Source of the DNA: Pseudoclavibacter terrae
Lineage (GTDB): Bacteria > Actinomycetota > Actinomycetes > Actinomycetales > Microbacteriaceae
Direction: 5' to 3'
Length of the DNA: 64,000 bases
Assembly: GCF_008831075.1 (NCBI RefSeq)
Contig: NZ_WBJX01000005.1
Location: forward strand, 186,001-250,000
Shown piece after piece: positions 50,377 to 64,000 of this stretch; position 1 is the stretch's first letter; each line of letters opens with the position of its first letter. The translations under genes were made by a program, and so were the position numbers. Under the pieces are notes generated by a model, which saw only the letters and a program-made list of their open reading frames with translations, searched no databases and was not told the origin of the DNA.

Positions 50377-50533
50377 ACTTTCCGGAGCATCGTTGACGGC
50401 TGGCGATTCCTCAGGAGGATCGTGCGCCCCGAGGGTGAGTACGCTTGGACGGCGCCACGCCCCAGACGTGGCTCGCGCATCCGGCACCGGATGCACCCCC
50501 GGCAGTCACAGGTTTCAGCACGAAGGAGCAACG

Positions 50534-51196
50534 ATGACGGCAGCAAGAGTCACCCCCCAGCAGGCGTGGGATGACCTGGTCCAGGGCAACGAGCGCTTCA
50601 TCAAGGGCGACCTGCTGCACCCGCAGCAGAGCGCGGCCCGACGGACCGAGATCTCGGGAAGCCAGGCGCCGAACGCCGCGTTCCTCGGCTGCTCCGACTC
50701 GCGCGTCGCCGCCGAGATCCTCTTCGACTGCGGCCTCGGCGACCTCTTCGTCGCCCGCAACATGGGGCAGATCGCCAACGAGAACACGACGGCCACCATG
50801 GAGTTCGCGGTCGCCGAGCTCGGCGTCGCGGTCATCGTGGTGCTCGCGCACGGCTCCTGCGGTGCCGTCAAGGCGGCCATCAACCAGACCACTGCGCACC
50901 CGCGCGACGTGACGCCCGCCATCAAGGACGAGCTCGCTCGCATCCAGCCCTCCGTGCAGGAGGAGTGGTTCACGAGCGACCAGTCGACGCCGTACGTCGA
51001 CGAAGCCCAGATCGACGCGGATGCCGTCGGTCGCCGCCACCTGTACTCGACGATCAACGCGCTTGTGCGCAGCTCGCGCGTCATCAGTGACGCCGTCGCC
51101 AGCGGCGCGCTCAGCATCGTCGGCTGCCAGTACGAGCTGTCCGACGGCCGCGTCGCGCCCGTGACCGCGATCGGCCAGCTCACCATCACCCGCTAG
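50534..51196 (+). CDS. Beta-class carbonic anhydrase
   Basis: A 220-residue beta-carbonic anhydrase, interconverting CO2 and bicarbonate in the cytoplasm. The zinc ligands are C53, H106 and C109, with the catalytic dyad D55-R57 in 'CSDSR' and 'HGSCGAV'. Actinobacterial enzymes of this type supply bicarbonate for carboxylases such as acetyl-CoA carboxylase. AAGGAG precedes ATG 50534. The upstream open frame runs antisense through the ROK regulator gene and is not counted. It diverges from the ROK gene and seems independent of it. Confidence 0.95.
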   Translation: MTAARVTPQQAWDDLVQGNERFIKGDLLHPQQSAARRTEISGSQAPNAAFLGCSDSRVAAEILFDCGLGDLFVARNMGQIANENTTATMEFAVAELGVAVIVVLAHGSCGAVKAAINQTTAHPRDVTPAIKDELARIQPSVQEEWFTSDQSTPYVDEAQIDADAVGRRHLYSTINALVRSSRVISDAVASGALSIVGCQYELSDGRVAPVTAIGQLTITR

Positions 51197-53014: not shown

Positions 53015-53716
53015 TCAGACAGGGAGGCCCTTCTGTCGCAGGAGCGCGTTGAAGCGCTCGGGATCGGCAGTGCCTTCTTCGTTGTGCTTCCGGATGCGTG
53101 CTTCGCGGTCGAGGTGCCTGCGTGCGTCCTGCAGGAGCGACTCCGCTCGCTGCGCAGGAACGGCGAGGACGCCGTCGAGGTCCCCGAGCACCAGGTCGCC
53201 CGGGTTCACGACGAGGCCCGCGATGGACACGGGCACGTTGATCTGGCCCGGCCCGTCCTTCGTGGGCCCGCGGTGCGTGTGGCCGCGCGCGTAGGCGGGC
53301 ATGCCGCCCTCCCGCCACTCGGCGACGTCGCGGAGGGCCCCGTCGATGACGAAGCCCCCGAGCCGCTTGGCGATGGCGCTCGTGCGGATGAGCCCCCCGA
53401 TGACCGCCTGGCTGAGGTCGCCGCCGCCTTCGATCACGATGACGTCGCCCGCGTGGGCATCCATCATGGCCTTGTGGACCATGAGGTTGTCGCCTGGCCG
53501 GATCTTCACGGTGACGGCCTGCCCCGAGAGCGGCGCGTCGCCATGGTAGGCGTGGAGGCCGAGCGCGCCGACCGAGCGCCCGAGGCAGTCGCCGGCGACG
53601 GCGACGGGGATCTCACGGAACGCGTCGATCAGCGATGCCGGGAGGTCGGGTGCACGCTCGCCGATGAAGTAGCCGGTCGGCCAGGCGGGTGCCGCGGTGG
53701 GGTCCTGCTCGGTCAT
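53015..53716 (-). CDS. RraA-like / 4-hydroxy-4-methyl-2-oxoglutarate aldolase-type protein
   Basis: A 233-residue RraA/HMG-aldolase-family protein. The metal- and substrate-binding region 'GGFVIDGALRDVAEW' carries the conserved Arg-Asp pair, and 'GDVIVIEGGGDLSQAVIGGLI' precedes it. Characterised relatives are divalent-metal aldolases that split 4-hydroxy-4-methyl-2-oxoglutarate or 4-carboxy-4-hydroxy-2-oxoadipate, and they also decarboxylate oxaloacetate; RraA proper inhibits RNase E. The neighbours (hydroxyacid dehydrogenase, citryl-CoA-lyase-like enzyme, CoA-transferase, tricarboxylate importer) favour an aldolase or decarboxylase. Starts inside the dehydrogenase stop (ATGA). Read from the IclR side of the locus. 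Confidence 0.88.
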   Translation of the reverse strand: MTEQDPTAAPAWPTGYFIGERAPDLPASLIDAFREIPVAVAGDCLGRSVGALGLHAYHGDAPLSGQAVTVKIRPGDNLMVHKAMMDAHAGDVIVIEGGGDLSQAVIGGLIRTSAIAKRLGGFVIDGALRDVAEWREGGMPAYARGHTHRGPTKDGPGQINVPVSIAGLVVNPGDLVLGDLDGVLAVPAQRAESLLQDARRHLDREARIRKHNEEGTADPERFNALLRQKGLPV

Positions 53717-54702
53717 GCGTTGCTCCGTTCGATCGAGAGAGTGGTGGGGTTCACGCAGGACCGCGCGTCCGGGGGAGTGCCCTCGAGGCAGCCGAGGATG
53801 TTCCGGGCGGCGGCCAGTGCCATGGCCTCCAGGGCCGCCGGGGTCGAGCCGCCGACGTGAGGCGTGACGACCACGTTCGGGCAGTCCAGCAGCGGGTTGC
53901 CCGGCTCCATGGGCTCCGACCAGGTGGTGTCGAGGCCCGCAGCGAAGAGCTGGCCGCTGCGAAGCGCCTCGACGAGGGCGGGCTCGTCGATGACCTCCCC
54001 GCGTGCCGTGTTCAGCACGATCGCATCCGCAGGCAGCAGGGCGAGCTGAGGGGCGCCGATGAGGCCGCGCGTCCGTTCGCTGAGCGGCACGTGGATGCTC
54101 AGCACATCGGCCTGCCCGAGCAGCTCTTCGAGGCTGCCGACCATGGCCAGCTCCGGGACGGGGGAGTCCAGTCCGAACCCCGGGTCGAAGGCCAGCACGC
54201 GCATCCCCGTCGCCGCCGCGGTGCGCGCGACCCGCTGCCCGATCTGGCCTGCACCGACGAGGCCGAGCGTCCCGCCCGCCAGCTGCCGCCCGTCCTGGGC
54301 TCTGCTCCAGCGTCCCGCTCGGATCTCCGCGTCCATCCAGGACACTCGGCGTGCGGCGTTGAACATGAGCGCGATCGTGAGCTCGGCGACCGATTGGGCG
54401 TTGGCCCCCGGCGTGGTGAACACCGGTATTCCACGGGCGGTCGCCGCGTCGACGTCGATGTTGCCGACGCCGACGCCGTGCTTCGAGATGACCCGGAGCC
54501 GCGGACTGGCCTCGATGGCGGCGGCGGACAGCTCGACGGTGCGGGAGATGACCCCGTCGACCGCTTCGCTGGCCATGATCTCCTCGACCTCGGTGCGACC
54601 GCCGCCGTCAGGCAAGTAGATGATCCTGCTTCCGGCGTCCTCCAGGGTTCGAACCCCGGCCTGACCGAGTCGTGGGGCCGTCACGAACACCGTTGCGCTC
54701 AT
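53713..54702 (-). CDS. D-isomer-specific 2-hydroxyacid dehydrogenase
   Basis: A 329-residue NAD-dependent 2-hydroxyacid dehydrogenase (SerA/GhrB-like). The NAD motif is 'LGLVGAGQIGQRVA', the catalytic arginine is in 'LNTARGEVIDEPALV' and the catalytic histidine in 'VVVTPHVGGST'; an Arg/Asn-rich substrate loop 'KHGVGVGNIDVDAATARGI' follows the first domain. These enzymes interconvert 2-oxo and D-2-hydroxy acids such as pyruvate/lactate, glyoxylate/glycolate or phosphoglycerate. Coupled to the RraA-like gene by a 4-base overlap and read from the IclR gene side, it most likely handles the 2-oxoacid made in the same pathway. Confidence 0.9.
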   Translation of the reverse strand: MSATVFVTAPRLGQAGVRTLEDAGSRIIYLPDGGGRTEVEEIMASEAVDGVISRTVELSAAAIEASPRLRVISKHGVGVGNIDVDAATARGIPVFTTPGANAQSVAELTIALMFNAARRVSWMDAEIRAGRWSRAQDGRQLAGGTLGLVGAGQIGQRVARTAAATGMRVLAFDPGFGLDSPVPELAMVGSLEELLGQADVLSIHVPLSERTRGLIGAPQLALLPADAIVLNTARGEVIDEPALVEALRSGQLFAAGLDTTWSEPMEPGNPLLDCPNVVVTPHVGGSTPAALEAMALAAARNILGCLEGTPPDARSCVNPTTLSIERSNA

Positions 54703-54776
54703 CGCACCGTCTCCTTCGTCGGTTCAAGGTCCTGCTTGGCTTGTGGGCGCGGGCGGTCTCGGACCGCACCGCGAGG

Positions 54777-55577
54777 TCATTCGAGGGCTGGCGGCAACCC
54801 GGTGCGTGGCACATCGCGCACGCAGGTGCGGAGCGCGTCGACGAACTCGGGGATGCGAGCGTCGACGAATCTGGCCGTGGGTCCGCCGAGCACCACGACG
54901 ACGGGCTGCAGGTGCGGCCGGTCCGGGTTCTCGGGCACGAGCATCGCTAGCCCGCTGTTGCCGGACTCCCGCTCGCCGTGGCTGAGGCCCCAGCCCTGCT
55001 CGCGGATCTTGTCCACACGTCGGCGCAGCGCGGCGGTGTCGACGTCGATGTCCTCGTCGGCATCGAGCTGCGCGAGCACCGCGTCGAGGACGTCGGGTCG
55101 TTCTCCACTGAGGAGGGTTGTCGATGCGGCGCCGAGCCAGATGGGCAGCTCGTCGCCGACCTGGACGACGTGGCGGATCGTGTGTCGGCCGGGCGCCTGT
55201 GCGATGGCGACGCGCTTGAGGTCGCGGCGGACGTAGAGGCTCACGGTCTCACCCGTCTGCTCGGCAAGCTCCCGGAGTCGGTCGAGCGTGGCGGCCGGGG
55301 CGGACCAGGCTGCCTTCGCGAAGGCTCCCCAGCGGATCATGCGGGGGCCGACGCTCACGCGGCCGTCGGGCAGCAGCTGCAGCATCCGCTCGCCCACGAG
55401 GGTATCGACGAGGCGGAGCACGGTCGTGCGCGGGAGCTCGCAGCGGCGGACGATGTCGGCGACGGCGAGTGACTGGCCTTCGTTCTCGAAGCAGTCGAGC
55501 ACGTCGAGGGCCCGGCTCACGGCGCGGATGCCACCCGGCTCTGACCGCTGGGCGGGTGCGTCGTCGGCGCTTGTCAT
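54777..55577 (-). CDS. IclR family transcriptional regulator
   Basis: A 266-residue IclR-type regulator. N-terminal winged helix: 'IRAVSRALDVLDCFENEGQSLAVADIVRRCELPRTTVLRLVDTL'; the C-terminal GAF-like effector domain contains 'ETVSLYVRRDLKRVAI' and 'GWGLSHGERESGNSGLAMLV'. IclR proteins respond to small organic acids such as glyoxylate, pyruvate, protocatechuate or malonate-type ligands. It diverges from the TctCBA operon across 104 bases containing three GTGGACA-type half-sites and also heads the dehydrogenase/RraA genes, so it should control both arms of the locus. GGAGACC lies before the ATG. Confidence 0.9.
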   Translation of the reverse strand: MTSADDAPAQRSEPGGIRAVSRALDVLDCFENEGQSLAVADIVRRCELPRTTVLRLVDTLVGERMLQLLPDGRVSVGPRMIRWGAFAKAAWSAPAATLDRLRELAEQTGETVSLYVRRDLKRVAIAQAPGRHTIRHVVQVGDELPIWLGAASTTLLSGERPDVLDAVLAQLDADEDIDVDTAALRRRVDKIREQGWGLSHGERESGNSGLAMLVPENPDRPHLQPVVVVLGGPTARFVDARIPEFVDALRTCVRDVPRTGLPPALE

Positions 55578-55631
55578 GGGGTCTCCGGCTTCGGATCGTT
55601 TGCTTGCCCGGTCACACTAGCGTACCATCTG

Positions 55632-55659
55632 GTGGACAGAAGTGTCCGCTGTGTGGACA
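55632..55659. promoter_or_regulatory. Triple half-site operator between iclR and tctC genes
   Basis: GTGGACA (55632-55638), TGTCCGC (55643-55649) and GTGGACA (55653-55659) give two overlapping inverted repeats: GGACA-gaag-TGTCC and TGTCC-N7-GGACA. The cluster ends 22 bases before the tctC start codon, well placed to bind the IclR protein. Confidence 0.65.
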
Positions 55660-55681
55660 AGTCAATCACAAGGGAGTGATC

Positions 55682-56668
55682 GTGACAGCAAGACGGAAGC
55701 TCATGGGCGGACTCGGCATCGCCGCGACCGCCGTGCTCGTCGGGATCGCGGCGTTCGACGCCAGCGACTCGACGACCGGGACCGACCCGAGTACGAAGCT
55801 CACGTTCATGGCGCCGGCAGCGCCTGGCGGTGGATGGGACGGTGTGGCACGCGAGGCGCAGCAGGCGCTGCGCGCAGACGGGATCGTCAACAACGTCCAG
55901 GTCGTCAACGTGCCCGGCGCCGGAGGCACCATCGGACTGTCGCAGTTCGTTGGCCTCGGGGCCGACCCGACCAACCTCATGATGACGGGGACGGTCATGA
56001 TGGGCGCGATCAACGTCAACGACTCCGCCGTCGACCTCTCCGACACGACGCCGATCGTGCGGCTCGCCGAGGACTACGAGGTGTTCATCGTGCCCGCGGA
56101 CTCGCCATACGAGACCCTGGATGACTTCATCGCCGACTGGAAGACGGACCCGCACGCGCTCGCCGTGGGCGGTGGCGGCGTCGGCGGCACCGACCATCTC
56201 CTCGCCGGTCTCGTCGCGGAGGATGTCGGCATCGACCCGGCCGAGCTCAACTACGTCTCATACGCGGGCGGCGGCGAGGTGCTCACCGCGCTGCTCTCGA
56301 ACACCGTCGCCGTCGGCGTCAGCGGCTACAACGAGTTCAGCGACCAGATCGAGGCGGGCAACCTCCGCGCGCTCGCCGTGTCTGCGGAAGCGCCCGTCGA
56401 CGGCATCGACATCCCCTCCCTCATGGACCAGGGCGTCGACGTCCACCTCCCCAACTGGCGAGGCATCGTCGCCCCTCCCGGCATCACGGACGCAGAACGC
56501 GACCAGCTCGTCTCGATCTTCGAGGAGATGGTCGCCACTCCCGAATGGCAGGACACGCTCGAACGCAACAACTGGGAGCCAGCAGTGCTCACGGGCGACG
56601 AATTCGCCGCCTTCATCGAAGAAGACCAGGCGAGAGTCGACCAGATCATCGAGGAGCTCGGACTATGA
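55682..56668 (+). CDS. tctC: Tripartite tricarboxylate transporter substrate-binding protein
   Basis: A 328-residue TctC/Bug-family receptor. The N-terminal signal/anchor ('GIAATAVLVGIAAF') leads to 'LTFMAPAAPGGGWDGVAREAQQAL', the invariant beginning of this fold, and 'VVNVPGAGGTIGL', the loop that binds carboxylates through main-chain amides. Ligands in the family are citrate, tricarballylate, aromatic and other dicarboxylates. There is no lipobox, so the protein may remain attached by its uncleaved N-terminal segment or be released, notable for a Gram-positive. GTG 55682 follows GGGAG. First gene of an operon reaching 60894, in which every gene overlaps the next. Confidence 0.92.
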   Translation: MTARRKLMGGLGIAATAVLVGIAAFDASDSTTGTDPSTKLTFMAPAAPGGGWDGVAREAQQALRADGIVNNVQVVNVPGAGGTIGLSQFVGLGADPTNLMMTGTVMMGAINVNDSAVDLSDTTPIVRLAEDYEVFIVPADSPYETLDDFIADWKTDPHALAVGGGGVGGTDHLLAGLVAEDVGIDPAELNYVSYAGGGEVLTALLSNTVAVGVSGYNEFSDQIEAGNLRALAVSAEAPVDGIDIPSLMDQGVDVHLPNWRGIVAPPGITDAERDQLVSIFEEMVATPEWQDTLERNNWEPAVLTGDEFAAFIEEDQARVDQIIEELGL

Positions 56669-57315
56669 CCGGCGTCATCCCCACCTCAGCGTGGACGCAG
56701 CACGACACCACCGCGAGCCCTGGCTGGTGGCGCCGCCGCACCGGACTCGTCGTGCCCGGAATCCTCACCCTCGTGGGGATCGGCCTCGTCATCGGCACCG
56801 TCACGATGGCCGTGCCGAGCAACGTCTCGCAGCCGGGCCCGCAGGTGTTCCCGGCAATCATCTCGGTCGCGATCTTCATCGTGGCGGCCTTCCTGGCCAT
56901 CGACGTCATCCGCAATCCGGAACCTGAGCGAGTGGCAGAGCCGGACCTGGCCGAGCTCCGAGGCGAGAAGAGGGTCGTCGACCAAGAGGTCGAGGAGCTC
57001 TCCGACTTCGACCGCGACGAGCTCGCGATCGTGCAGGACAAGGAGCTCGCGGCCGAGCACATCAGGCCGCGCACCAACATCCGCTCCCTGCTTGGCGCCC
57101 TCGGCACGACGATCGTCTTCATCGCCGCGCTCACCCCGCTCGGCTGGCTGCTCTCCGGCGCCTTCCTCTTCTGGGGCATCTCCAGGGCCCTCGGCAGCCG
57201 CCGACCCGTGTTCGACATCTTCCTCGCGCTCGCGATGTCGTCCATCGTGCAGATCGCGTTCTCGATCGGGCTCGGCCTCAACCTTCCTCCCGGCATCTTC
57301 GTAGGAGTCCTCTGA
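56665..57315 (+). CDS. tctB: Tripartite tricarboxylate transporter small membrane subunit
   Basis: A 216-residue TctB-type protein with four hydrophobic segments. Between the second and third segments is an unusually long, highly charged cytoplasmic loop of about 60 residues ('RNPEPERVAEPDLAELRG' through 'LAAEHIRPRTN'), larger than in the classical 145-residue TctB; a regulatory or partner-binding role is possible. Starts inside the tctC stop codon (ATGA) and ends with TGATG overlapping the tctA start, so the three subunits are translated together. Works with TctA to move carboxylates by a sodium or proton gradient. Confidence 0.85.
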   Translation: MTGVIPTSAWTQHDTTASPGWWRRRTGLVVPGILTLVGIGLVIGTVTMAVPSNVSQPGPQVFPAIISVAIFIVAAFLAIDVIRNPEPERVAEPDLAELRGEKRVVDQEVEELSDFDRDELAIVQDKELAAEHIRPRTNIRSLLGALGTTIVFIAALTPLGWLLSGAFLFWGISRALGSRRPVFDIFLALAMSSIVQIAFSIGLGLNLPPGIFVGVL

Positions 57316-58832
57316 TGGATACGCTCGCAAACCTCGGGGAAGGGTTCCTCACGGTCCTGACCCCCATCAACATGCTCTGGGTCCTCATCGGCGCCGTGCT
57401 CGGCACGGCCGTCGGGGTCCTCCCCGGCCTCGGCTCGGCGATGGCCGTCGCCCTCCTCCTCCCCGTCACGTTCTCGCTCGACCCCATCGGCGCCTTCATC
57501 ATGTTCGCTGGCGTGCTCTTCGGTGGGCTCTTCGGCGATTCGATCGCCGGCATCCTCATGAACACGCCAGGCAACAGCACGGCGATCGCCGGATCGATCG
57601 AAGGCCATGCCATGGCCAAGAACGGACGAGCGGCTCAGGCCCTCGCCACCTCGGCCATCGGAGCCTTCATCGGCGGCATCCTCGCGTCGATCCTCGTCGT
57701 CTTCTTCGCGCCTCGACTCGCGGAACTCGCGACGCTGTTCGGCCCAGCCGAGTACCTGGCACTCGCCATCTTCGCGTTCATCGCGATCTCGGCGGTCGTG
57801 ACGCAGTCCATCATCCGCGGTCTCGCGGCGCTCGTCCTCGGCCTTGCCATCTCCGTCGTCGGCATCGACTCGATCTCGGGCACATCGCGCTTCACGGCTG
57901 GCATCCCCGAGCTCTTCGACGGCATCGACATCGTCGTCATCACGGTCGGCCTGCTCGCGCTCGGCGAGGTCTTCGCCGTCGCGGGACGTCGCGGCTACTC
58001 CGACGACACCGGTCTCATCCAGTCGAAGGGACGCCTCTGGCTGTCGCTGCGCGAGCTGCGTCAGGCGCTGCCGGCCTGGCTCCGCGGAACCGCCATCGGC
58101 ATCCCCTTCGGCATCATCCCCGTCGGCGGCGCCGAGGTGCCGACGTTCCTCTCGTACGGCGCCGAGCGTCGGCTCGACAAACGTCGCAAGAAGCCGATGT
58201 TCGGCTTCGGCGCCATCCAGGGTGTCGCGGGCCCTGAAGCAGCTGGAAACGCCACAGCGGGAACCGCCATGGGCGCGCTGCTCGCGCTCGGCCTGCCCAC
58301 CTCGGCCACCGCGGCGATCCTCCTCGCGGCGTTCCGGCAGTACGGTCTCCAGCCAGGGCCGCTGCTCTTCGAGCGCTCCAGCGAACTCGTCTGGGCGCTG
58401 CTCGCGAGCTTCTTCATCGGCATGGTCGTGCTCCTCATCCTCAACCTCCCCTTCGCGCCGCTCTGGGCGAAGCTGCTGAAGATCCCACGCCACTACCTGT
58501 ACGCGAGCATCACGCTCTTCGCGATGCTCGGCGTCTACGCCACGAGCGGCAAGATCCTCGACCTCGTGCTCGTCGTCGTCATCGGGCTCATCGGATTCAC
58601 GATGCGGCGCTACGGGCTGCCCGTCGCCCCGATGCTCATCGCGATCATCCTCGGGCCGCTCGCCGAGACCGAGTTCCGCCGGGCGATGGCGGTCAGCGAG
58701 GGCGACCCCGGCGTGCTCATCGACAGCCCCATCACGATCACCCTCTACTCCGTCCTCGCACTCACCGTGGCGTTCGTCATCGTGCGGGTCGTCCGCGCGA
58801 AGCTCGCCGCGAGAAAGGAAGTCACGGTATGA
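57315..58832 (+). CDS. tctA: Tripartite tricarboxylate transporter large membrane subunit
   Basis: A 505-residue TctA permease with ten to twelve hydrophobic segments. Family signatures: 'GTAVGVLPGLGSAMAVALLLPVTF', 'FGDSIAGILMNTPGNSTAIA' and later 'GVAGPEAAGNATAGTAMGALLALGLPTS', the paired PGLG/NTPG and second-half equivalents that form the substrate site. Translocates the carboxylate presented by TctC. Coupled to tctB through TGATG and to the CoA-transferase gene by a 4-base overlap. The operon context (CoA-transferase, citryl-CoA-lyase-like enzyme) favours a branched or tertiary hydroxy-acid such as citrate or citramalate as the transported substrate. Confidence 0.93.
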   Translation: MDTLANLGEGFLTVLTPINMLWVLIGAVLGTAVGVLPGLGSAMAVALLLPVTFSLDPIGAFIMFAGVLFGGLFGDSIAGILMNTPGNSTAIAGSIEGHAMAKNGRAAQALATSAIGAFIGGILASILVVFFAPRLAELATLFGPAEYLALAIFAFIAISAVVTQSIIRGLAALVLGLAISVVGIDSISGTSRFTAGIPELFDGIDIVVITVGLLALGEVFAVAGRRGYSDDTGLIQSKGRLWLSLRELRQALPAWLRGTAIGIPFGIIPVGGAEVPTFLSYGAERRLDKRRKKPMFGFGAIQGVAGPEAAGNATAGTAMGALLALGLPTSATAAILLAAFRQYGLQPGPLLFERSSELVWALLASFFIGMVVLLILNLPFAPLWAKLLKIPRHYLYASITLFAMLGVYATSGKILDLVLVVVIGLIGFTMRRYGLPVAPMLIAIILGPLAETEFRRAMAVSEGDPGVLIDSPITITLYSVLALTVAFVIVRVVRAKLAARKEVTV

Positions 58833-60043
58833 CCGAGACCCCATCAGGCCCACTCGCGGGAGTCCGCGTGCTCGACATGACCAACGTGCTGGCAGGGCCG
58901 TACGCCTGCTACCAGCTCGCCCTCATGGGGGCGGAGGTCATCAAGGTCGAAGTGCCGGACGGGGGAGACCTCGCCCGCAGGCTCGGCGCCGACTCCGAGC
59001 TCAACGGCAGCCTGATGGGGGTCTCCTTCCTGGCGCAGAACGCCCAGAAGCGCTCGATCACGCTCGACCTGAAGTCGGACGGAGGCCGGGAGGTCATGCG
59101 GCGCCTGGTCGCCGAGGCGGACGTGCTCTGCGAGAACTTCCGGCCAGGCGTGCTCGAGCGGCTCGGCTTCGGCTGGGATGCGCTGCGGGCCATCAACAGC
59201 AGGCTCGTCTACTGCGCCATCTCCGGCTTCGGCCAGACGGGACCGCTGCGCTCCAAGCCCGCCTACGACCAGATCATCCAGGGCGGGTCCGGGATGATGA
59301 GCGTCACCGGCACCCCGGAGACCTCCCCGCTCCGGGCCGGCTACCCGATCGCCGACACACTCGGCGGGCTCGCGGCCGCGTTCGCGATCTCGTCCGCACT
59401 GCACGGACGCGAGCGCACCGGGGTGGGCTCGAGCATCGACGTGTCGATGCTCGAGACCGCCGTCACCGCAATGGGGTGGGTCGTGTCGAACCACCTCGTC
59501 GCCGACCAGGTGCCACGCGCCCTCGGCAACGACAACGGCACGGCCGCACCGTCCGGGACCTTCCAGACGGCGACCGGGGCGCTCAACATCGCAGCGAACA
59601 AGCAGGAGCAGTTCGTCGCGCTCGTCGCGGCGATCGGCCGACCCGAGCTGGCCGACGACCCGCGCTTCCGGGACCGGGAGGATCGCAAGCGCTTCCGGGC
59701 GGAGCTCACGCGCGAGATCGAGCAGGCGCTGAGCGCGCACGACACGCCGCACTGGGAGGACCTGCTCTCGGAACGGGGCGTGCCGGCGGCTGCCGTCCTC
59801 ACCGTTCCGGAGATGCTCGCCAGCCCGCAGATCGTCGACCGGGAGCTCGTGCACGACCTGCCCTTCCCCGGGCGCGACGGCGAGACCCTGCGGGTGCTCG
59901 GCAACGGCATCCGCCTCGATGACCGACCGAGCGCCCCGACCGTCCCGCCACCGGGGCTCGGCGAGCACACCGACGAGATCCTGCACGAGCTCGGCTACGA
60001 CGACGGGCAGATCCGAGCACTTCACGAGGAGCGAGCCGTATGA
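58829..60043 (+). CDS. CaiB/BaiF family CoA-transferase
   Basis: A 404-residue class III CoA-transferase. The opening 'LAGVRVLDMTNVLAGPYACYQLALMGAEVIKVE' and 'NAQKRSITLDLKSDGGREVMRRLVAEADVLCENFRPG' are diagnostic, and 'GFGQTGPLRSKPAYDQIIQGGSG' forms part of the CoA site. Members exchange CoA between carboxylic acids (formyl/oxalyl, succinyl/citramalyl, carnitine, benzylsuccinate). In this operon it probably activates the imported acid with succinyl-CoA or acetyl-CoA as donor, making the thioester for the lyase encoded next. ATGA overlap with tctA, and its own stop overlaps the start of the lyase gene in the same manner. Confidence 0.92.
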   Translation: MTETPSGPLAGVRVLDMTNVLAGPYACYQLALMGAEVIKVEVPDGGDLARRLGADSELNGSLMGVSFLAQNAQKRSITLDLKSDGGREVMRRLVAEADVLCENFRPGVLERLGFGWDALRAINSRLVYCAISGFGQTGPLRSKPAYDQIIQGGSGMMSVTGTPETSPLRAGYPIADTLGGLAAAFAISSALHGRERTGVGSSIDVSMLETAVTAMGWVVSNHLVADQVPRALGNDNGTAAPSGTFQTATGALNIAANKQEQFVALVAAIGRPELADDPRFRDREDRKRFRAELTREIEQALSAHDTPHWEDLLSERGVPAAAVLTVPEMLASPQIVDRELVHDLPFPGRDGETLRVLGNGIRLDDRPSAPTVPPPGLGEHTDEILHELGYDDGQIRALHEERAV

Positions 60044-60894
60044 GCAGCACCACCGGCCACCAGCCCACCGTCGACGACGCGACCGCATGGTGGAGCACCA
60101 GCGTCACCCGCATCGCCCCAGGGGAGATCGAGCTCCGCGGCTACCCGATCGAGGAGGTCATCGGCAACGTCGGGTTCGTGAGCACGATCTGGCTCCTCAC
60201 GACCGGGGCGCTCCCGACGAGGGCCGTGTCCGAGCTCCTCGAGGCGACGCTCGTCGCGAGCGTCGACCACGGCCCCCAGGCGCCGTCGATCGCCAGCGCG
60301 CGCATGGCCGCGACCTGCGGCGTGGGCCTCAACTCGGCCGTCGCCAACGGCGTGAACGTGCTCGGCGACACGCACGGCGGTGCCGGCCAGCAGTGCGTCC
60401 AGCTGCTCAACGACCTCGTCGAGCGGCACGAGTCCGAAGGGATCGCGTTGGAGCAGCTCGCCCGCGAGGCGATCGCCGATCACAAGGGCCGGGGCGCGTT
60501 CGTGCCGGGCTTCGGGCACCGGTTCCACCCCCGCGACCCGCGCCGCGACCCGCTGCTGCGGCTCGTCGAGGAGGCCGTCGCGAGGGGTGATATCTCGGGT
60601 CGCTACCTCGCCGCCGGTCTGGCGCTCGAGCGCGCGCTCGAGCGGGGGGAGCGGCGCATCCCGATGAACATCGACGGCATCTCCGCCATCGTGTACGCCG
60701 AGCTCGGCGTCCAGCCGGAGCTCGCGAGGGGCCTCTTCGTGCTGTCGCGCTCCGTGGGGATCCTCGCCCACGCCTGGGAGGAGAAGCAGGCGGGCCAGCG
60801 CATCAAGGGCCCGCTGCCGCCGCCCCTGCTCGCCGACTACACGGGCGAGGCGACGCGCGCCGTGCCCCGCGCACACCGGCCAGCTACTCCCTGA
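60040..60894 (+). CDS. Citryl-CoA lyase / citrate synthase-like enzyme
   Basis: A 284-residue citrate-synthase-superfamily protein, much shorter than citrate synthase (about 370-430). The three catalytic positions are recognisable: His in 'LGDTHGGAGQQC', His in 'PGFGHRFHPRDPR' and Asp in 'IPMNIDGISA'. Short members of this kind act as citryl-CoA lyases (citryl-CoA to acetyl-CoA plus oxaloacetate) or on analogues such as citramalyl-type thioesters. Preceded by a CoA-transferase with a 4-base overlap, it would cleave the activated acid to acetyl-CoA and a 2-oxoacid, the latter being a plausible substrate for the RraA-like and hydroxyacid dehydrogenase proteins on the other arm. Its 3' end overlaps the convergent permease gene by 11 bases. 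Confidence 0.85.
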   Translation: MSSTTGHQPTVDDATAWWSTSVTRIAPGEIELRGYPIEEVIGNVGFVSTIWLLTTGALPTRAVSELLEATLVASVDHGPQAPSIASARMAATCGVGLNSAVANGVNVLGDTHGGAGQQCVQLLNDLVERHESEGIALEQLAREAIADHKGRGAFVPGFGHRFHPRDPRRDPLLRLVEEAVARGDISGRYLAAGLALERALERGERRIPMNIDGISAIVYAELGVQPELARGLFVLSRSVGILAHAWEEKQAGQRIKGPLPPPLLADYTGEATRAVPRAHRPATP

Positions 60895-61702
60895 CCGCCC
60901 CCTCGAGCATCCCCTGGATGAAGTGGCGCTGCAGGAAGATGTAGAGCACCACGACGGGCAGCGCGACCATGATGGCGCCCGCCGCGAGCAGCGCCGTGCC
61001 CTGCGTGTACTGGCCCTGGAAGAAGGCGAGGCCGAGAGGCGCCGTGCGCACGCTGCCGTCGGGCGACATCACGAGGGGGATGAGGAACTCGTTCCAGGTC
61101 CACATGAACGTCAGCAGCACCAGCGTGAGGATGGCGGGCCGGCCGATCGGCACGAGCACCTGCCACAGGATGCGCATGGACCCGGCTCCGTCGAGCTTGG
61201 CCGCGTCGATGAGGGCCTGGCTCGAGGAGCGGAAGTAGGTGCGCATCCAGAACGTGCCGAACGCGATCGACATGGCGATCTGCGGGAACGCGACCCCCCA
61301 CACCGTGTTCGTCAGCCCGACGGTGCGCAGGTCGAAGTAGAGGGGCACGATGAACGCCTCCGTCGGCACCATGATGCCGAGGAGGAACAGGTAGAAGATC
61401 GACGTCGCGCCGCGGAACTTCATGGTGCCGAGCGCGTAGCCGGCGAGGATGGACGCGAGCACGGCGACGACCACCACGATCGCCGCGACGACCACCGACG
61501 TGAGCATGTACTGCCCGAAGCGGGCGACCTCCCAGGCCGTGGGGAAGTTCTCCCAGTGGAAGATGCGCCCCTCCTGGGCGACGGTCGCGTTCTCCGGACC
61601 GAACGCGAGCGCCACGATGACGCTGATCGGTCCGAGGATGACGAGCCCGAAGACGCCGAGGATCAGGTAGTTGGCGACCTTCTCGAAGACGGAGACGTTC
61701 AT
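60884..61702 (-). CDS. Carbohydrate ABC permease, MalG type (second system)
   Basis: A 272-residue permease with six hydrophobic segments; coupling loop 'ALIDAAKLDGAGSMRILWQVLVPIGRPAILT'. It starts inside the stop codon of the MalF-type permease gene (ATGA). The 3' end runs 11 bases into the convergent citryl-CoA-lyase-like gene, so transcription from the two sides meets with no separating terminator. With the neighbouring permease and the binding protein at the window edge it makes a sugar importer distinct from the mannoside system at 45.7-48.9 kb. No ATPase gene is visible; ligand unknown. Confidence 0.92.
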   Translation of the reverse strand: MNVSVFEKVANYLILGVFGLVILGPISVIVALAFGPENATVAQEGRIFHWENFPTAWEVARFGQYMLTSVVVAAIVVVVAVLASILAGYALGTMKFRGATSIFYLFLLGIMVPTEAFIVPLYFDLRTVGLTNTVWGVAFPQIAMSIAFGTFWMRTYFRSSSQALIDAAKLDGAGSMRILWQVLVPIGRPAILTLVLLTFMWTWNEFLIPLVMSPDGSVRTAPLGLAFFQGQYTQGTALLAAGAIMVALPVVVLYIFLQRHFIQGMLEGAVRE

Positions 61703-62613
61703 GCGCGGTCCCCGATCCGGTTCACGACGAAGTTGATGGCGAAGACGATGAGCGTGAGCACAGCGCCGACTGCCGTGGCGGCCCCGACCTCGCCGAGCTC
61801 GAACGCCCGCCGGTACACCTCGAAGCTCGGCACGGTCGTCGATGTGCCGGGCCCGCCGCTCGTGGTGACGTAGATGAGGTCGAAGGTCTTGAGCGCGGCG
61901 ACGATCGTGAGGGTCAGGGCGACCGTGATCTCGCCACGCACCGACGGCAGGGTGATGGAGAAGAACTCGCGCACGGGTCCCGCGCCGTCGAGCCTCGCGG
62001 CCTCGTACAGCTCCTTCGGCACGCGGCTCATGCCGGCCATGAGCAGCACGGTCACGAGGCCGAGCGACACCCACGAGCCGATGAGCCCCACGGCTGGCAG
62101 GGTGAAGGTGTAGTCGCCGAGCCACGCCCGCGTCCAGCTCTCGAGCCCCACGAGGCGCAGCAGCCCGTTGAGCGGTCCGTCGGGCGCGTAGATCTGCCGC
62201 CACGTGACGGCGACGACGACCATCGCGATGACCTGCGGCAGGAAGATGAGGGTGCGGAAGAAGCCGAGGCCCCGCACCTTCGCGCGCGTCAGGATGGCCG
62301 CGAGCATGAGCCCGACCGCGAGCGGCAGGATCGCGTAGAAGAAGATGAGCACGAACGCGTGCCCGAACGCCTCACGCAGCCGCTCGTCCTGCACGATCTG
62401 CACGTAGTTGTCGAAGCCGACGAAGGTGGATGCGCCCAGCCCGTCCCACTCGAAAAACGAGAACTGCACGGCCCGACCGAGTGGGAACAGCAGGAACGTG
62501 CCGTAGAGGAGGAACGCGGGCGCGAGGTACGCGAACGGCACCCAGGCGGGGGTGCCACGGCTGGCACCCCTCGCTGGGCGGCGCTTGCGCGCCGTGGGGT
62601 TCTCGACCGTCAT
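61699..62613 (-). CDS. Carbohydrate ABC permease, MalF type (second system)
   Basis: A 304-residue permease with six hydrophobic segments; coupling loop 'ELYEAARLDGAGPVREFFSITLPSVRGEI' and the 'TSGGPGTSTTVPSFEVYRRAF' region typical of Gram-positive MalF/UgpA relatives. The N-terminus is short and basic ('ARKRRPARG'). ATG 62613 is the only sensible start; the open frame continues upstream but overlaps the binding-protein gene with low-complexity sequence. No Shine-Dalgarno stands out, and 73 bases separate it from the binding-protein stop, the largest gap in this unit. Confidence 0.88.
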   Translation of the reverse strand: MTVENPTARKRRPARGASRGTPAWVPFAYLAPAFLLYGTFLLFPLGRAVQFSFFEWDGLGASTFVGFDNYVQIVQDERLREAFGHAFVLIFFYAILPLAVGLMLAAILTRAKVRGLGFFRTLIFLPQVIAMVVVAVTWRQIYAPDGPLNGLLRLVGLESWTRAWLGDYTFTLPAVGLIGSWVSLGLVTVLLMAGMSRVPKELYEAARLDGAGPVREFFSITLPSVRGEITVALTLTIVAALKTFDLIYVTTSGGPGTSTTVPSFEVYRRAFELGEVGAATAVGAVLTLIVFAINFVVNRIGDRA

Positions 62614-62686
62614 CCGCGGAGACGCTCGGGCCGCACTCGCGCGGCCAGGCCCAGACGGATGCTCCTCAGCTGCGACGACACTCGGC

Positions 62687-64000
62687 TCACTCGTTCGCTG
62701 CAGTGAAGGCCGCGTAGTCGGTCTCGAGGGCCTCGGTGAACTGCTCTGGCGTGAGCTGTCCGTCGATGAGCCCCTGCAGGGACTGGCCGATCGTGTCGCC
62801 GAAGGTCGGCGTCGCGTAGTCCAGGTAGGGGAGCACGCTGCCCGACTCGGTGACCTCGCCGAACGCCCCGTAGATGTCGGCGAAGACACCAGACTCCGGC
62901 GCGAGCTCAGCGGACTTGTTCACGGGCAGGTTGCCCGTGTCGGCGAGGATCTGCATGGCGTCATCGCTCGTCAGGAAGTCGATGTACGCGGCGGCGACAT
63001 CGGTGTTGTCGGCTGCCGAGGTCATCGCGAACGGGAGGCCGGTGCCGCCGGTCGTCGCCAGCGCGCCATCATCCGTCTTCGGCACGAAGAAGCCGAGGTC
63101 GTCGCCCATGGTCGCCTCGAGGTCGGCCGCGAGCCAGGAGCCGCCGATGAGGAAGACGCCGTTGCCCTCGGCAAGCGCCTGCCAGGCCGCGTCGTAGTCG
63201 GTGCCGTTCACGCCAGCATTGAAGTAGCCGTCGTCCACCCAGCCCTTGAGTGCGGACGCCGCCTCCACGTTCTCCGGAGTCGTCCAGCTCGCGCCGGGGT
63301 TGCCGAGCCCGAGGTTCGTGACGGTCTCCGCATCCACGTAGCCACCCTGCAGCGGACCGAACACGTGCCCGGCCGGCCACTGCTCGATGTTGCCGAGCTG
63401 CATGGGCGTCTCGCCCGCCGCCTTCGCTGTCGCGAGTGCTGCATCGAACTCCGACCAGGTGCCGGGCACCTCGATGCCGAGCTTGTCGAGCTTCGCCTTC
63501 GAGTAGAAGATGCCCACGACCTCGCCGACCTGGGGGAGGCCGTACAGGTTGCCCTCGCCGAACACCTTCGCGTCCTCGCTGTACGTCGAGTACTGCAGGA
63601 TCGACTCCTGGTAGCGGTCGAACCAGCCGTACGCCTCCGCGTAGTCGTCGAGCGGGCGCAGCTGCCCGGCCTCGACGAACGCCCCCATCGTGTTCCGGCC
63701 GTTGTTGGCCTGCACGACGTCGGGCGCGTTGTCGTCGGTGAGCGCCAGGCGCAGCGTCGTCGCCAGGTCGTCGAAGGCCTGCGAGTTCCGCTCGATCGTC
63801 ACGTTCGGATACAGCTCCTCGAACGCCGCGTTCAACTGCTCGATCTGCTCGTTCTGCCCGCCGCGCACCTCCTGGTCCCAGACGGTGAGCGTCACGTCCC
63901 CGACCTGCGAGATGTCGGTGCTGATGTCGCCTGCCGGCTCGGCCGGGCCGTCCGTCTGGCCGGTGCCCGGCGCGCAGCCCGCCAGTGCGAGGACGAGCGC
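62687..64000 (-). CDS. Extracellular solute-binding lipoprotein (5' end outside window)
   Basis: The last 437 codons of a family 1 solute-binding protein; the frame is open to the window edge and the start codon lies beyond it. The visible N-terminus reads 'ALVLALAGCAPGTGQ', the end of a lipoprotein signal with lipobox LAGC, so only about 15 residues are missing. The mature part begins 'VTLTVWDQEVRGGQNEQI', typical for sugar binders of the MalE/UgpB type, and includes 'FLIGGSWLAADLEATMGDDLGFF'. It is the first known gene of the importer whose permeases follow at 62613 and 61702. Ligand unknown. Confidence 0.92.
   Translation of the reverse strand, partial: ALVLALAGCAPGTGQTDGPAEPAGDISTDISQVGDVTLTVWDQEVRGGQNEQIEQLNAAFEELYPNVTIERNSQAFDDLATTLRLALTDDNAPDVVQANNGRNTMGAFVEAGQLRPLDDYAEAYGWFDRYQESILQYSTYSEDAKVFGEGNLYGLPQVGEVVGIFYSKAKLDKLGIEVPGTWSEFDAALATAKAAGETPMQLGNIEQWPAGHVFGPLQGGYVDAETVTNLGLGNPGASWTTPENVEAASALKGWVDDGYFNAGVNGTDYDAAWQALAEGNGVFLIGGSWLAADLEATMGDDLGFFVPKTDDGALATTGGTGLPFAMTSAADNTDVAAAYIDFLTSDDAMQILADTGNLPVNKSAELAPESGVFADIYGAFGEVTESGSVLPYLDYATPTFGDTIGQSLQGLIDGQLTPEQFTEALETDYAAFTAANE

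What the first reader, a model, noticed from the sequence alone, without database searches (positions are those of the whole stretch)
53015..60894. CoA-dependent organic-acid catabolic locus combining TTT importer, CoA-transferase, citryl-CoA-lyase-like enzyme, RraA-like aldolase and D-2-hydroxyacid dehydrogenase
Seen: two divergent arms around an iclR gene with a triple half-site operator; TctCBA, CoA-transferase and lyase are all translationally coupled, and the other arm holds a dehydrogenase coupled to an RraA-like gene. Known: class III CoA-transferases activate acids, short citrate-synthase homologues cleave citryl-CoA-type thioesters, HMG-aldolase-type RraA proteins decarboxylate oxaloacetate. 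Inference: imported citrate, citramalate or a related tertiary hydroxy acid is converted to its CoA ester, cleaved to acetyl-CoA plus a 2-oxoacid, and the oxoacid is decarboxylated and/or reduced to a D-hydroxy acid. I know of no described pathway with this exact set.
Basis: partly seen in the sequence, partly recalled or inferred. Interest (0 to 1): 0.75.

Follow-up and report, generated by a model that had tools for sequence, protein, structure and literature searches.

The report
Two-module organic-acid breakdown gene locus
This is a switch-controlled set of genes that most likely imports a citrate-like acid, attaches coenzyme A and splits it; the gene pair at its heart is widespread in bacteria, but our searches turned up no report of which acid it consumes.

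Summary
Eight genes (rraA-like, D-2-hydroxyacid dehydrogenase, iclR, tctC, tctB, tctA, class III CoA-transferase, citryl-CoA-lyase-like) lie at the stated places, with five overlapping stop/start junctions and a triple half-site operator shared with 13 other loci. The lyase scores 419 bits on NCBIfam 'citryl-CoA lyase' NF004864 (cut-off 261), keeps the citrate-synthase catalytic His/His/Asp and separates from citrate and methylcitrate synthases. The CoA-transferase/lyase pair is a conserved core (CoA-transferase in 77 of 80 related loci). The dehydrogenase/RraA pair is a second module: 15 of 80 loci carry both. In this genus it is of proteobacterial type and sits where relatives carry another clade in reversed order, so probably a displacement in place; it also occurs without the core. 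Elsewhere the core is joined by an acetolactate-synthase-like thiamine-diphosphate enzyme plus aldehyde dehydrogenase, or by tricarballylate-dehydrogenase-like and aconitase genes, or by neither. I infer import, CoA activation and retro-Claisen cleavage to acetyl-CoA plus a 2-oxo acid that the second module processes. The substrate is unresolved, and reduction to a D-hydroxy acid is not supported over oxidation.

The parts
53015..53716 (-). RraA-like protein (233 aa), subfamily NF004850/PRK06201.1; Arg129-Asp130 align with catalytic Arg123 and metal ligand Asp124 of the HMG/CHA aldolase
   Evidence: 246.3 bits, cut-off 231; best PDB match 3noj, E 3.2e-26
53713..54702 (-). D-2-hydroxyacid dehydrogenase (329 aa), with Arg234, Glu263 and His282 at the usual catalytic places (roles recalled)
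54777..55577 (-). IclR-family regulator (266 aa)
55600..55628 (+). promoter-like TTGCTT-17-TACCAT upstream of tctC, by eye only; the consensus scan found none
   Evidence: a TACC block stands at this place in all 14 aligned sites
55630..55659 (+). triple half-site operator, GGYGGACA / RTCCRC / GYGGACA
55682..56668 (+). [quoted passage not shown]
56665..57315 (+). TctB small membrane subunit
57315..58832 (+). TctA large membrane subunit
   Evidence: three other TctA copies in the genome at 64-70% identity
58829..60043 (+). class III (CaiB/BaiF) CoA-transferase; Asp176 aligns with an Asp of YfdE (4hl6) and 10uh
60040..60894 (+). citryl-CoA-lyase-like protein of the citrate synthase fold; His112, His160, Asp212, Arg168, Arg237 invariant in 38 aligned rows, window included

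Best explanation
A locally regulated catabolic locus made of two modules behind one importer. The IclR protein binds the triple half-site over the tctC promoter and controls the operon until its ligand is present (inferred). TctCBA imports a citrate-like hydroxy di- or tricarboxylate (inferred). Core module: the class III CoA-transferase makes the CoA thioester, and the citrate-synthase-fold lyase splits it by retro-Claisen reaction into acetyl-CoA and a 2-oxo acid (families and catalytic residues shown; reaction inferred). Second module: the RraA-like class II pyruvate aldolase/decarboxylase and the D-2-hydroxyacid dehydrogenase connect that 2-oxo acid, or a related 2-hydroxy acid taken up by the same importer, to central metabolism (inferred; direction of the dehydrogenase undecided). 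The exact acid is not determined.
For: Lyase 419.1 bits on NF004864 (cut-off 261), 80.4 bits on TIGR01800, the 2-methylcitrate synthase/citrate synthase II model; best solved structure by sequence and by predicted fold is citryl-CoA lyase 6hxp, and fold ranks 1-40 of the 50 shown are citryl-CoA lyase or ATP-citrate lyase (model pLDDT 85.8). Catalytic triad motifs in 78 of 80 relatives. CoA-transferase in 77 of 80 loci, within 300 bases of the lyase on the same strand in 76, in 32 of 35 genus-level labels. TctC-TctB-TctA-CoA-transferase-lyase in the same order in Ruegeria. Both RraA and dehydrogenase in 15 of 80 loci, each of the 15 also with TctA. Pair replaced in place: trees of rows that I chose (24 and 19) put the window's RraA (99/97) and dehydrogenase (100/100) with proteobacterial rows, while Microbacterium, Frigoribacterium and Streptomyces carry another clade in reversed order, although TctA, CoA-transferase and lyase are 82-88%, 73-77% and 64-71% identical in the Microbacteriaceae loci. 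The 15 pair loci show no hit (E 1e-15) to the thiamine-diphosphate or aldehyde dehydrogenase queries that 32 other loci match, as expected of alternative ways to handle one product. Operator conserved. Precedent: Pseudomonas ict and ccl suffice for (S)-citramalate breakdown to acetyl-CoA and pyruvate (PMC9875883, passages).
Against: No substrate or activity is shown by any tool. 33 of 80 loci show none of the queried oxo-acid enzymes (15 with TctA only, 7 with the MHS transporter only, 3 with aconitase only, 8 with none), so the core may not need them. The dehydrogenase-RraA pair also lives without the core (6 of 7 plasmid records opened out of 101 matches), so it may serve a different acid. 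The CoA-transferase reaches no NCBIfam equivalog cut-off (best 306 of 750 bits). In three family members the lyase has no CoA-transferase hit but has a thiamine-diphosphate enzyme, and in the one examined an acylating-aldehyde-dehydrogenase-like gene. The operator was not found in two loci with the full gene set, L020 and L079. By sequence alignment the lyase family has Gly where citrate synthases have their third carboxylate-binding arginine (role recalled), so binding of a distal carboxylate is not assured; 6hxp has Lys-Arg there.
Confidence: 0.6

Rival explanations
1. Plain citrate dissimilation: TctCBA brings in citrate, citryl-CoA is split to acetyl-CoA and oxaloacetate, RraA decarboxylates oxaloacetate to pyruvate and the dehydrogenase makes or uses D-lactate or D-malate.
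For: Family name and structure match citryl-CoA lyase; HMG/CHA aldolase has oxaloacetate decarboxylase activity (PMC5065237, passages); relatives of the pair sit by annotated citrate transporters in two plasmid records; tricarballylate-dehydrogenase-like and AcnA genes beside the core in Nocardia, Amycolatopsis and Agrobacterium; 33 of 80 loci show no dedicated oxo-acid enzyme among those queried.
Against: Citrate and oxaloacetate are central metabolites that need none of the follow-up enzymes seen in the other 47 loci; the R[IN]KGP signature replaces the third carboxylate-binding arginine by alignment.
Confidence: 0.22
2. Citramalate-type breakdown: citramalyl-CoA is split to acetyl-CoA and pyruvate, as by the unrelated Ict/Ccl pair.
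For: Same two-step logic works in Pseudomonas (PMC9875883, passages); loss of the third arginine would suit a smaller product.
Against: Pyruvate needs no RraA or dehydrogenase; neighbours in other genomes (TcuA-like, AcnA) look tricarboxylate-related.
Confidence: 0.15
3. Two independent pathways share one importer: the dehydrogenase oxidises an imported D-2-hydroxy acid and RraA cleaves the 2-oxo acid, while the CoA-transferase and lyase serve another acid.
For: The dehydrogenase directly precedes RraA in 6 of 7 opened plasmid records, four of those six with a citrate transporter or TctC/TctCBA genes next to it and no annotated core; in Streptomyces L041, L047, L054 and L059 the two modules lie side by side with two IclR genes.
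Against: In the Microbacteriaceae loci with all eight genes both modules lie behind one IclR and operator, and the pair was replaced rather than lost.
Confidence: 0.3
4. Not a catabolic lyase but a synthase-like or side activity, with the gene set assembled by chance.
For: Citrate synthase fold; function untested.
Against: CoA-transferase in 77 of 80 loci; separation from citrate and methylcitrate synthases.
Confidence: 0.05

Closest known systems
Citryl-CoA lyase (Hydrogenobacter thermophilus Ccl, PDB 6hxp; ATP-citrate lyase core module)
   Same: Fold, length, catalytic His/His/Asp; best match by sequence and by predicted fold
   Different: 28% identical in the structural alignment; partner is a CoA-transferase, not a citryl-CoA synthetase; R[IN]KGP signature; 6hxp belongs to reductive carbon fixation (recalled)
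Itaconate/citramalate Ict-Ich-Ccl pathway of Pseudomonas
   Same: CoA-transferase followed by a CoA-lyase yielding acetyl-CoA and a 2-oxo acid (PMC9875883, passages)
   Different: That lyase is CitE-like, a different fold (recalled); no hydratase among the eight genes here
HMG/CHA aldolase (PDB 3noj) and the RraA-family enzyme FlDet
   Same: RraA fold, Arg-Asp pair
   Different: Below the equivalog cut-offs (129 of 179 and 119.6 of 304.5 bits); FlDet shows that the family also holds a dehydratase/decarboxylase (PMC8563752, passages)
Tricarballylate utilisation (TcuA, TcuC)
   Same: TcuA-like FAD enzyme and MHS-type transporter lie beside the same core in other genomes
   Different: Not in this locus; the three FAD proteins scored fall just below the TcuA cut-off (350-359 of 369 bits)

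Membership tests
NF004864 citryl-CoA lyase (PRK06224.1-1) | profile score above curated cut-off | tested here: met
   419.1 bits, cut-off 261
NF004864 citryl-CoA lyase (PRK06224.1-1) | citrate-synthase catalytic residues present | tested here: met
   His112, His160, Asp212 invariant in 38 rows; their roles are recalled
NF004864 citryl-CoA lyase (PRK06224.1-1) | cleaves citryl-CoA | not testable with these tools
   needs an enzyme assay
2-methylcitrate/citrate synthase | groups with synthases or scores above their models | tested here: not met
   80.4 of 421.3 bits on TIGR01800; 8 synthase-like rows on a separate 100/100 branch
Class III CoA-transferase | PF02515 above cut-off and aspartate in place | tested here: met
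   401.2 bits, cut-off 23.3; Asp176 aligned with YfdE; its catalytic role is recalled
HMG/CHA aldolase (NF006731, TIGR02798) | profile score above curated cut-off | tested here: not met
   129 of 179 and 119.6 of 304.5 bits
HMG/CHA aldolase (NF006731, TIGR02798) | Arg-Asp catalytic and metal site | tested here: met
   Arg129-Asp130
Tripartite tricarboxylate transporter | TctA, TctB and TctC together | tested here: met
Itaconate Ict-Ich-Ccl pathway | CitE-like lyase and itaconyl-CoA hydratase in the cluster | tested here: not met
   lyase is of citrate synthase fold and no hydratase is among the eight genes

The most novel reading that the evidence does not exclude
The CoA-transferase/lyase pair is the core of a widespread, undescribed route for a citrate analogue that ordinary aconitase and TCA enzymes cannot use. 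In this genus the acid could be hydroxycitrate-like: its CoA ester would give acetyl-CoA and oxaloglycolate, RraA would decarboxylate that to hydroxypyruvate, and the dehydrogenase would reduce it to D-glycerate, while other genomes use a thiamine-diphosphate enzyme and an aldehyde dehydrogenase for the same oxo acid.
Probability: 0.22. Interest if true: 0.7.

Novelty: new variant of a known kind. Interest (0 to 1): 0.48.

Why it matters
A lyase that databases label citryl-CoA lyase sits in a conserved pair with a CoA-transferase in Actinobacteria and Proteobacteria, with at least three different sets of partner enzymes. Finding its acid would test many annotations and might add an organic-acid pathway. 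The apparent displacement of a two-gene sub-module in place is a natural hint that both of its enzymes are needed.

Tried and rejected
Considered and set aside: methylcitrate synthase (scores, tree); the itaconate pathway (no hydratase, other lyase fold); sulfonate catabolism, suggested by sulfoacetaldehyde-dehydrogenase-like scores in neighbours (360 of 700 and 451 of 600 bits) and a TauE/SafE gene in Azoarcus, but those scores are below cut-offs and none of these genes is in this locus; itatartarate (would give hydroxypyruvate), kept only as a candidate.

Papers: in the rows listed by searches 11 (0 papers), 18, 19, 36, 37, 38, 90 and 91 I saw none on this gene set; several lists were capped (for example 25 of 205, 8 of 116). 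Passages of six papers were read (PMC9875883 also abstract and outline). The library holds open-licence papers only.

Led nowhere: promoter/terminator scan (none found); a looser two-half-site pattern is no better than chance (2 matches, 2.46 expected); the family search with NF004864 in 100 genomes rang citrate synthases, with only the own genome over the cut-off. The operator search was mis-spaced by one base and was redone. Trees contained rows read in the wrong frame or strand and are not used. One search dropped four rows (L085, L086, L088, L089; three of them lyase-like), and still holds one unreliable row, L087, placed inside the family; holding the family as one clade is not rejected (p-AU 0.352), which does not prove it. 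ORF clusters include spurious antisense frames and served only as leads. Three plasmid regions opened for annotation, besides one of Streptomyces, had none.

Full report
Observation. The two arms are iclR, dehydrogenase and rraA on the minus strand and tctC, tctB, tctA, CoA-transferase and lyase on the plus strand, with five overlapping stop/start junctions. The operator is supported by three tests: one match and none in 100 shuffles; alignment with 13 of 14 relatives looked at, in which 14 of 37 columns never vary; and top rank in the window for a matrix trained without the window and L004. It was not found in L020 or L079, which also carry the gene set. It is the only exact match in the genome, so the regulator looks local.

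The lyase. It passes the NCBIfam model NF004864 'citryl-CoA lyase' with 419 bits against a cut-off of 261 and scores 80 bits on the 2-methylcitrate synthase/citrate synthase II model. The nearest solved structure is citryl-CoA lyase 6hxp by single sequence, by profile and by predicted fold (TM-score 0.66-0.72, rmsd 11.4 A, perhaps because only a monomer was modelled). In 38 aligned rows the residues that correspond to the citrate synthase catalytic residues are invariant (roles recalled). The tree puts eight synthase-like sequences on a branch of their own (100/100). The family shares R-[IN]-K-G-P (77 of 80; three have R-N-K-S-P) near the end, where the alignments place a citrate synthase arginine that binds carboxylate (role recalled); 6hxp has Lys-Arg there. 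This is a sequence argument only.

The core pair. The three without are L029, whose contig begins 160 bases before the match, and two metagenome contigs, L071 and L082. IclR genes are near in 69 or 64 of 80, by the E-value used.

The partners. TctA is present in 31 of 80 loci and both RraA and dehydrogenase in 15; sorted into exclusive classes, 15 have that pair, 20 a thiamine-diphosphate enzyme with an aldehyde dehydrogenase, 2 the former alone, 8 a TcuA-like FAD enzyme with an aldehyde dehydrogenase, 2 an aldehyde dehydrogenase alone, 3 an aconitase alone, 15 TctA alone, 7 the MHS transporter alone and 8 none of these. AcnA-type aconitases lie in 7 of 80; of three of the seven tested, two pass the AcnA equivalog TIGR01341 (958 and 1015 of 945 bits) and one does not (898). 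None of the 15 pair loci shows the thiamine-diphosphate or aldehyde dehydrogenase genes. The loci are related by descent, so this exclusion is suggestive, not a statistical test. It fits partner sets that are alternative ways to handle one oxo-acid product, and argues mildly that the product is not oxaloacetate or pyruvate; the 33 loci without such sets argue the other way.

The second module was swapped. Of ten relatives in the family that hold the lyase (11 of 398 genomes matched, the own one included), six carry all eight genes, one (L150) has CoA-transferase, lyase and RraA with a distant importer and no dehydrogenase hit, and three (L151-L153) have the lyase without CoA-transferase, TctA, RraA or dehydrogenase. 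In the Microbacteriaceae loci outside this genus with all eight genes, TctA, CoA-transferase and lyase are 82-88%, 73-77% and 64-71% identical to the window's, but RraA and dehydrogenase are only 40-45% identical and stand in reversed order, overlapping in several loci. Their RraA is also of another subfamily by score where tested (L006 182, L047 193 of 231 bits on NF004850, against 246 for the window and 255 for Pseudomonas L079). Trees of rows that I chose place the window's RraA with proteobacterial sequences (99/97) and its dehydrogenase likewise (100/100), apart from those of Microbacterium, Frigoribacterium and Streptomyces. A match to the window's RraA at E below 1e-45 was found in 3 of 299 family genomes, the own one included, all of this genus, whereas plasmids of Neorhizobium and a Comamonadaceae carry 70% and 67% identical proteins. 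I read this as displacement in place of a matched two-gene set, which suggests that both functions are wanted in this locus. A loss followed by an independent gain is not excluded.

The second module alone. I opened 7 of the 101 plasmid records matched by RraA. The dehydrogenase directly precedes RraA in 6; in the seventh (Paracoccus) an Ldh-family enzyme follows it. Next to the pair lie an annotated citrate transporter, TctC genes, MFS transporters, a citrate:proton symporter or TctCBA. No CoA-transferase or lyase is annotated in these stretches; the gene table is incomplete by the tool's own account. In Sinorhizobium medicae an Ldh-family dehydrogenase follows the importer. An imported 2-hydroxy acid that is oxidised and then cleaved or decarboxylated would explain these.

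Mechanism. Shown: gene content, coupling, operator, conserved pair, catalytic residues. Inferred: import, CoA transfer, retro-Claisen cleavage, processing of the oxo acid, control by IclR. Pseudomonas gives a precedent for the two-step logic with an unrelated lyase: ict and ccl suffice for (S)-citramalate (PMC9875883, passages). HMG/CHA aldolase cleaves 4-hydroxy-2-oxo acids and decarboxylates oxaloacetate, with Arg123 and the metal ligand Asp124 (PMC5065237, passages); the window protein has that pair but is below the cut-offs of those models. Another RraA-family enzyme is a dehydratase/decarboxylase (PMC8563752, passages), so the reaction here cannot be read from the family.

Genus. G436, in the same genus as the window by the tool, has a contig of the same length (298,677 bases) as that of Pseudoclavibacter sp. 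AY1H1, so the window probably comes from the genus of that strain.

Verdict. A real, conserved and coherent catabolic locus whose core is widespread and, in the papers searched, without a described substrate. It is a new variant of a known kind (CoA-transferase plus CoA-lyase), not a new kind of system.

Noticed in passing
   Followed up: partly
L010, L026, L030, L032, L038, L042, L045: AcnA-type aconitase genes beside or near the CoA-transferase/lyase pair, in four of them (L026, L030, L032, L038) with a TcuA-like FAD enzyme.
   Followed up: partly
L154 (Azoarcus) and L151: 3-dehydroquinate dehydratase genes, and in Azoarcus also a shikimate dehydrogenase, near the lyase; link unexplained.
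   Followed up: no
[quoted passage not shown]
   Followed up: no
L045, L073, L077: A second, 33% identical citrate-synthase-like gene lies within about 10 kb of the lyase; the one in L073 scores as citrate synthase PRK12350.
   Followed up: partly
window 60884-63895, minus strand: By the look of the translations, a sugar-type ABC transporter (binding protein and two permeases); its last gene ends convergently, overlapping the end of the lyase gene by about 11 bases.
   Followed up: no
window about 50530-51196, plus strand: Protein that looks like a beta-class carbonic anhydrase (by eye).
   Followed up: no
G000 C8:134920, C4:136567, C1:765750: Three further TctCBA importers in the genome (TctA 64-70% identical), none with CoA-transferase or lyase relatives within the 17-kb stretches fetched.
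   Followed up: yes
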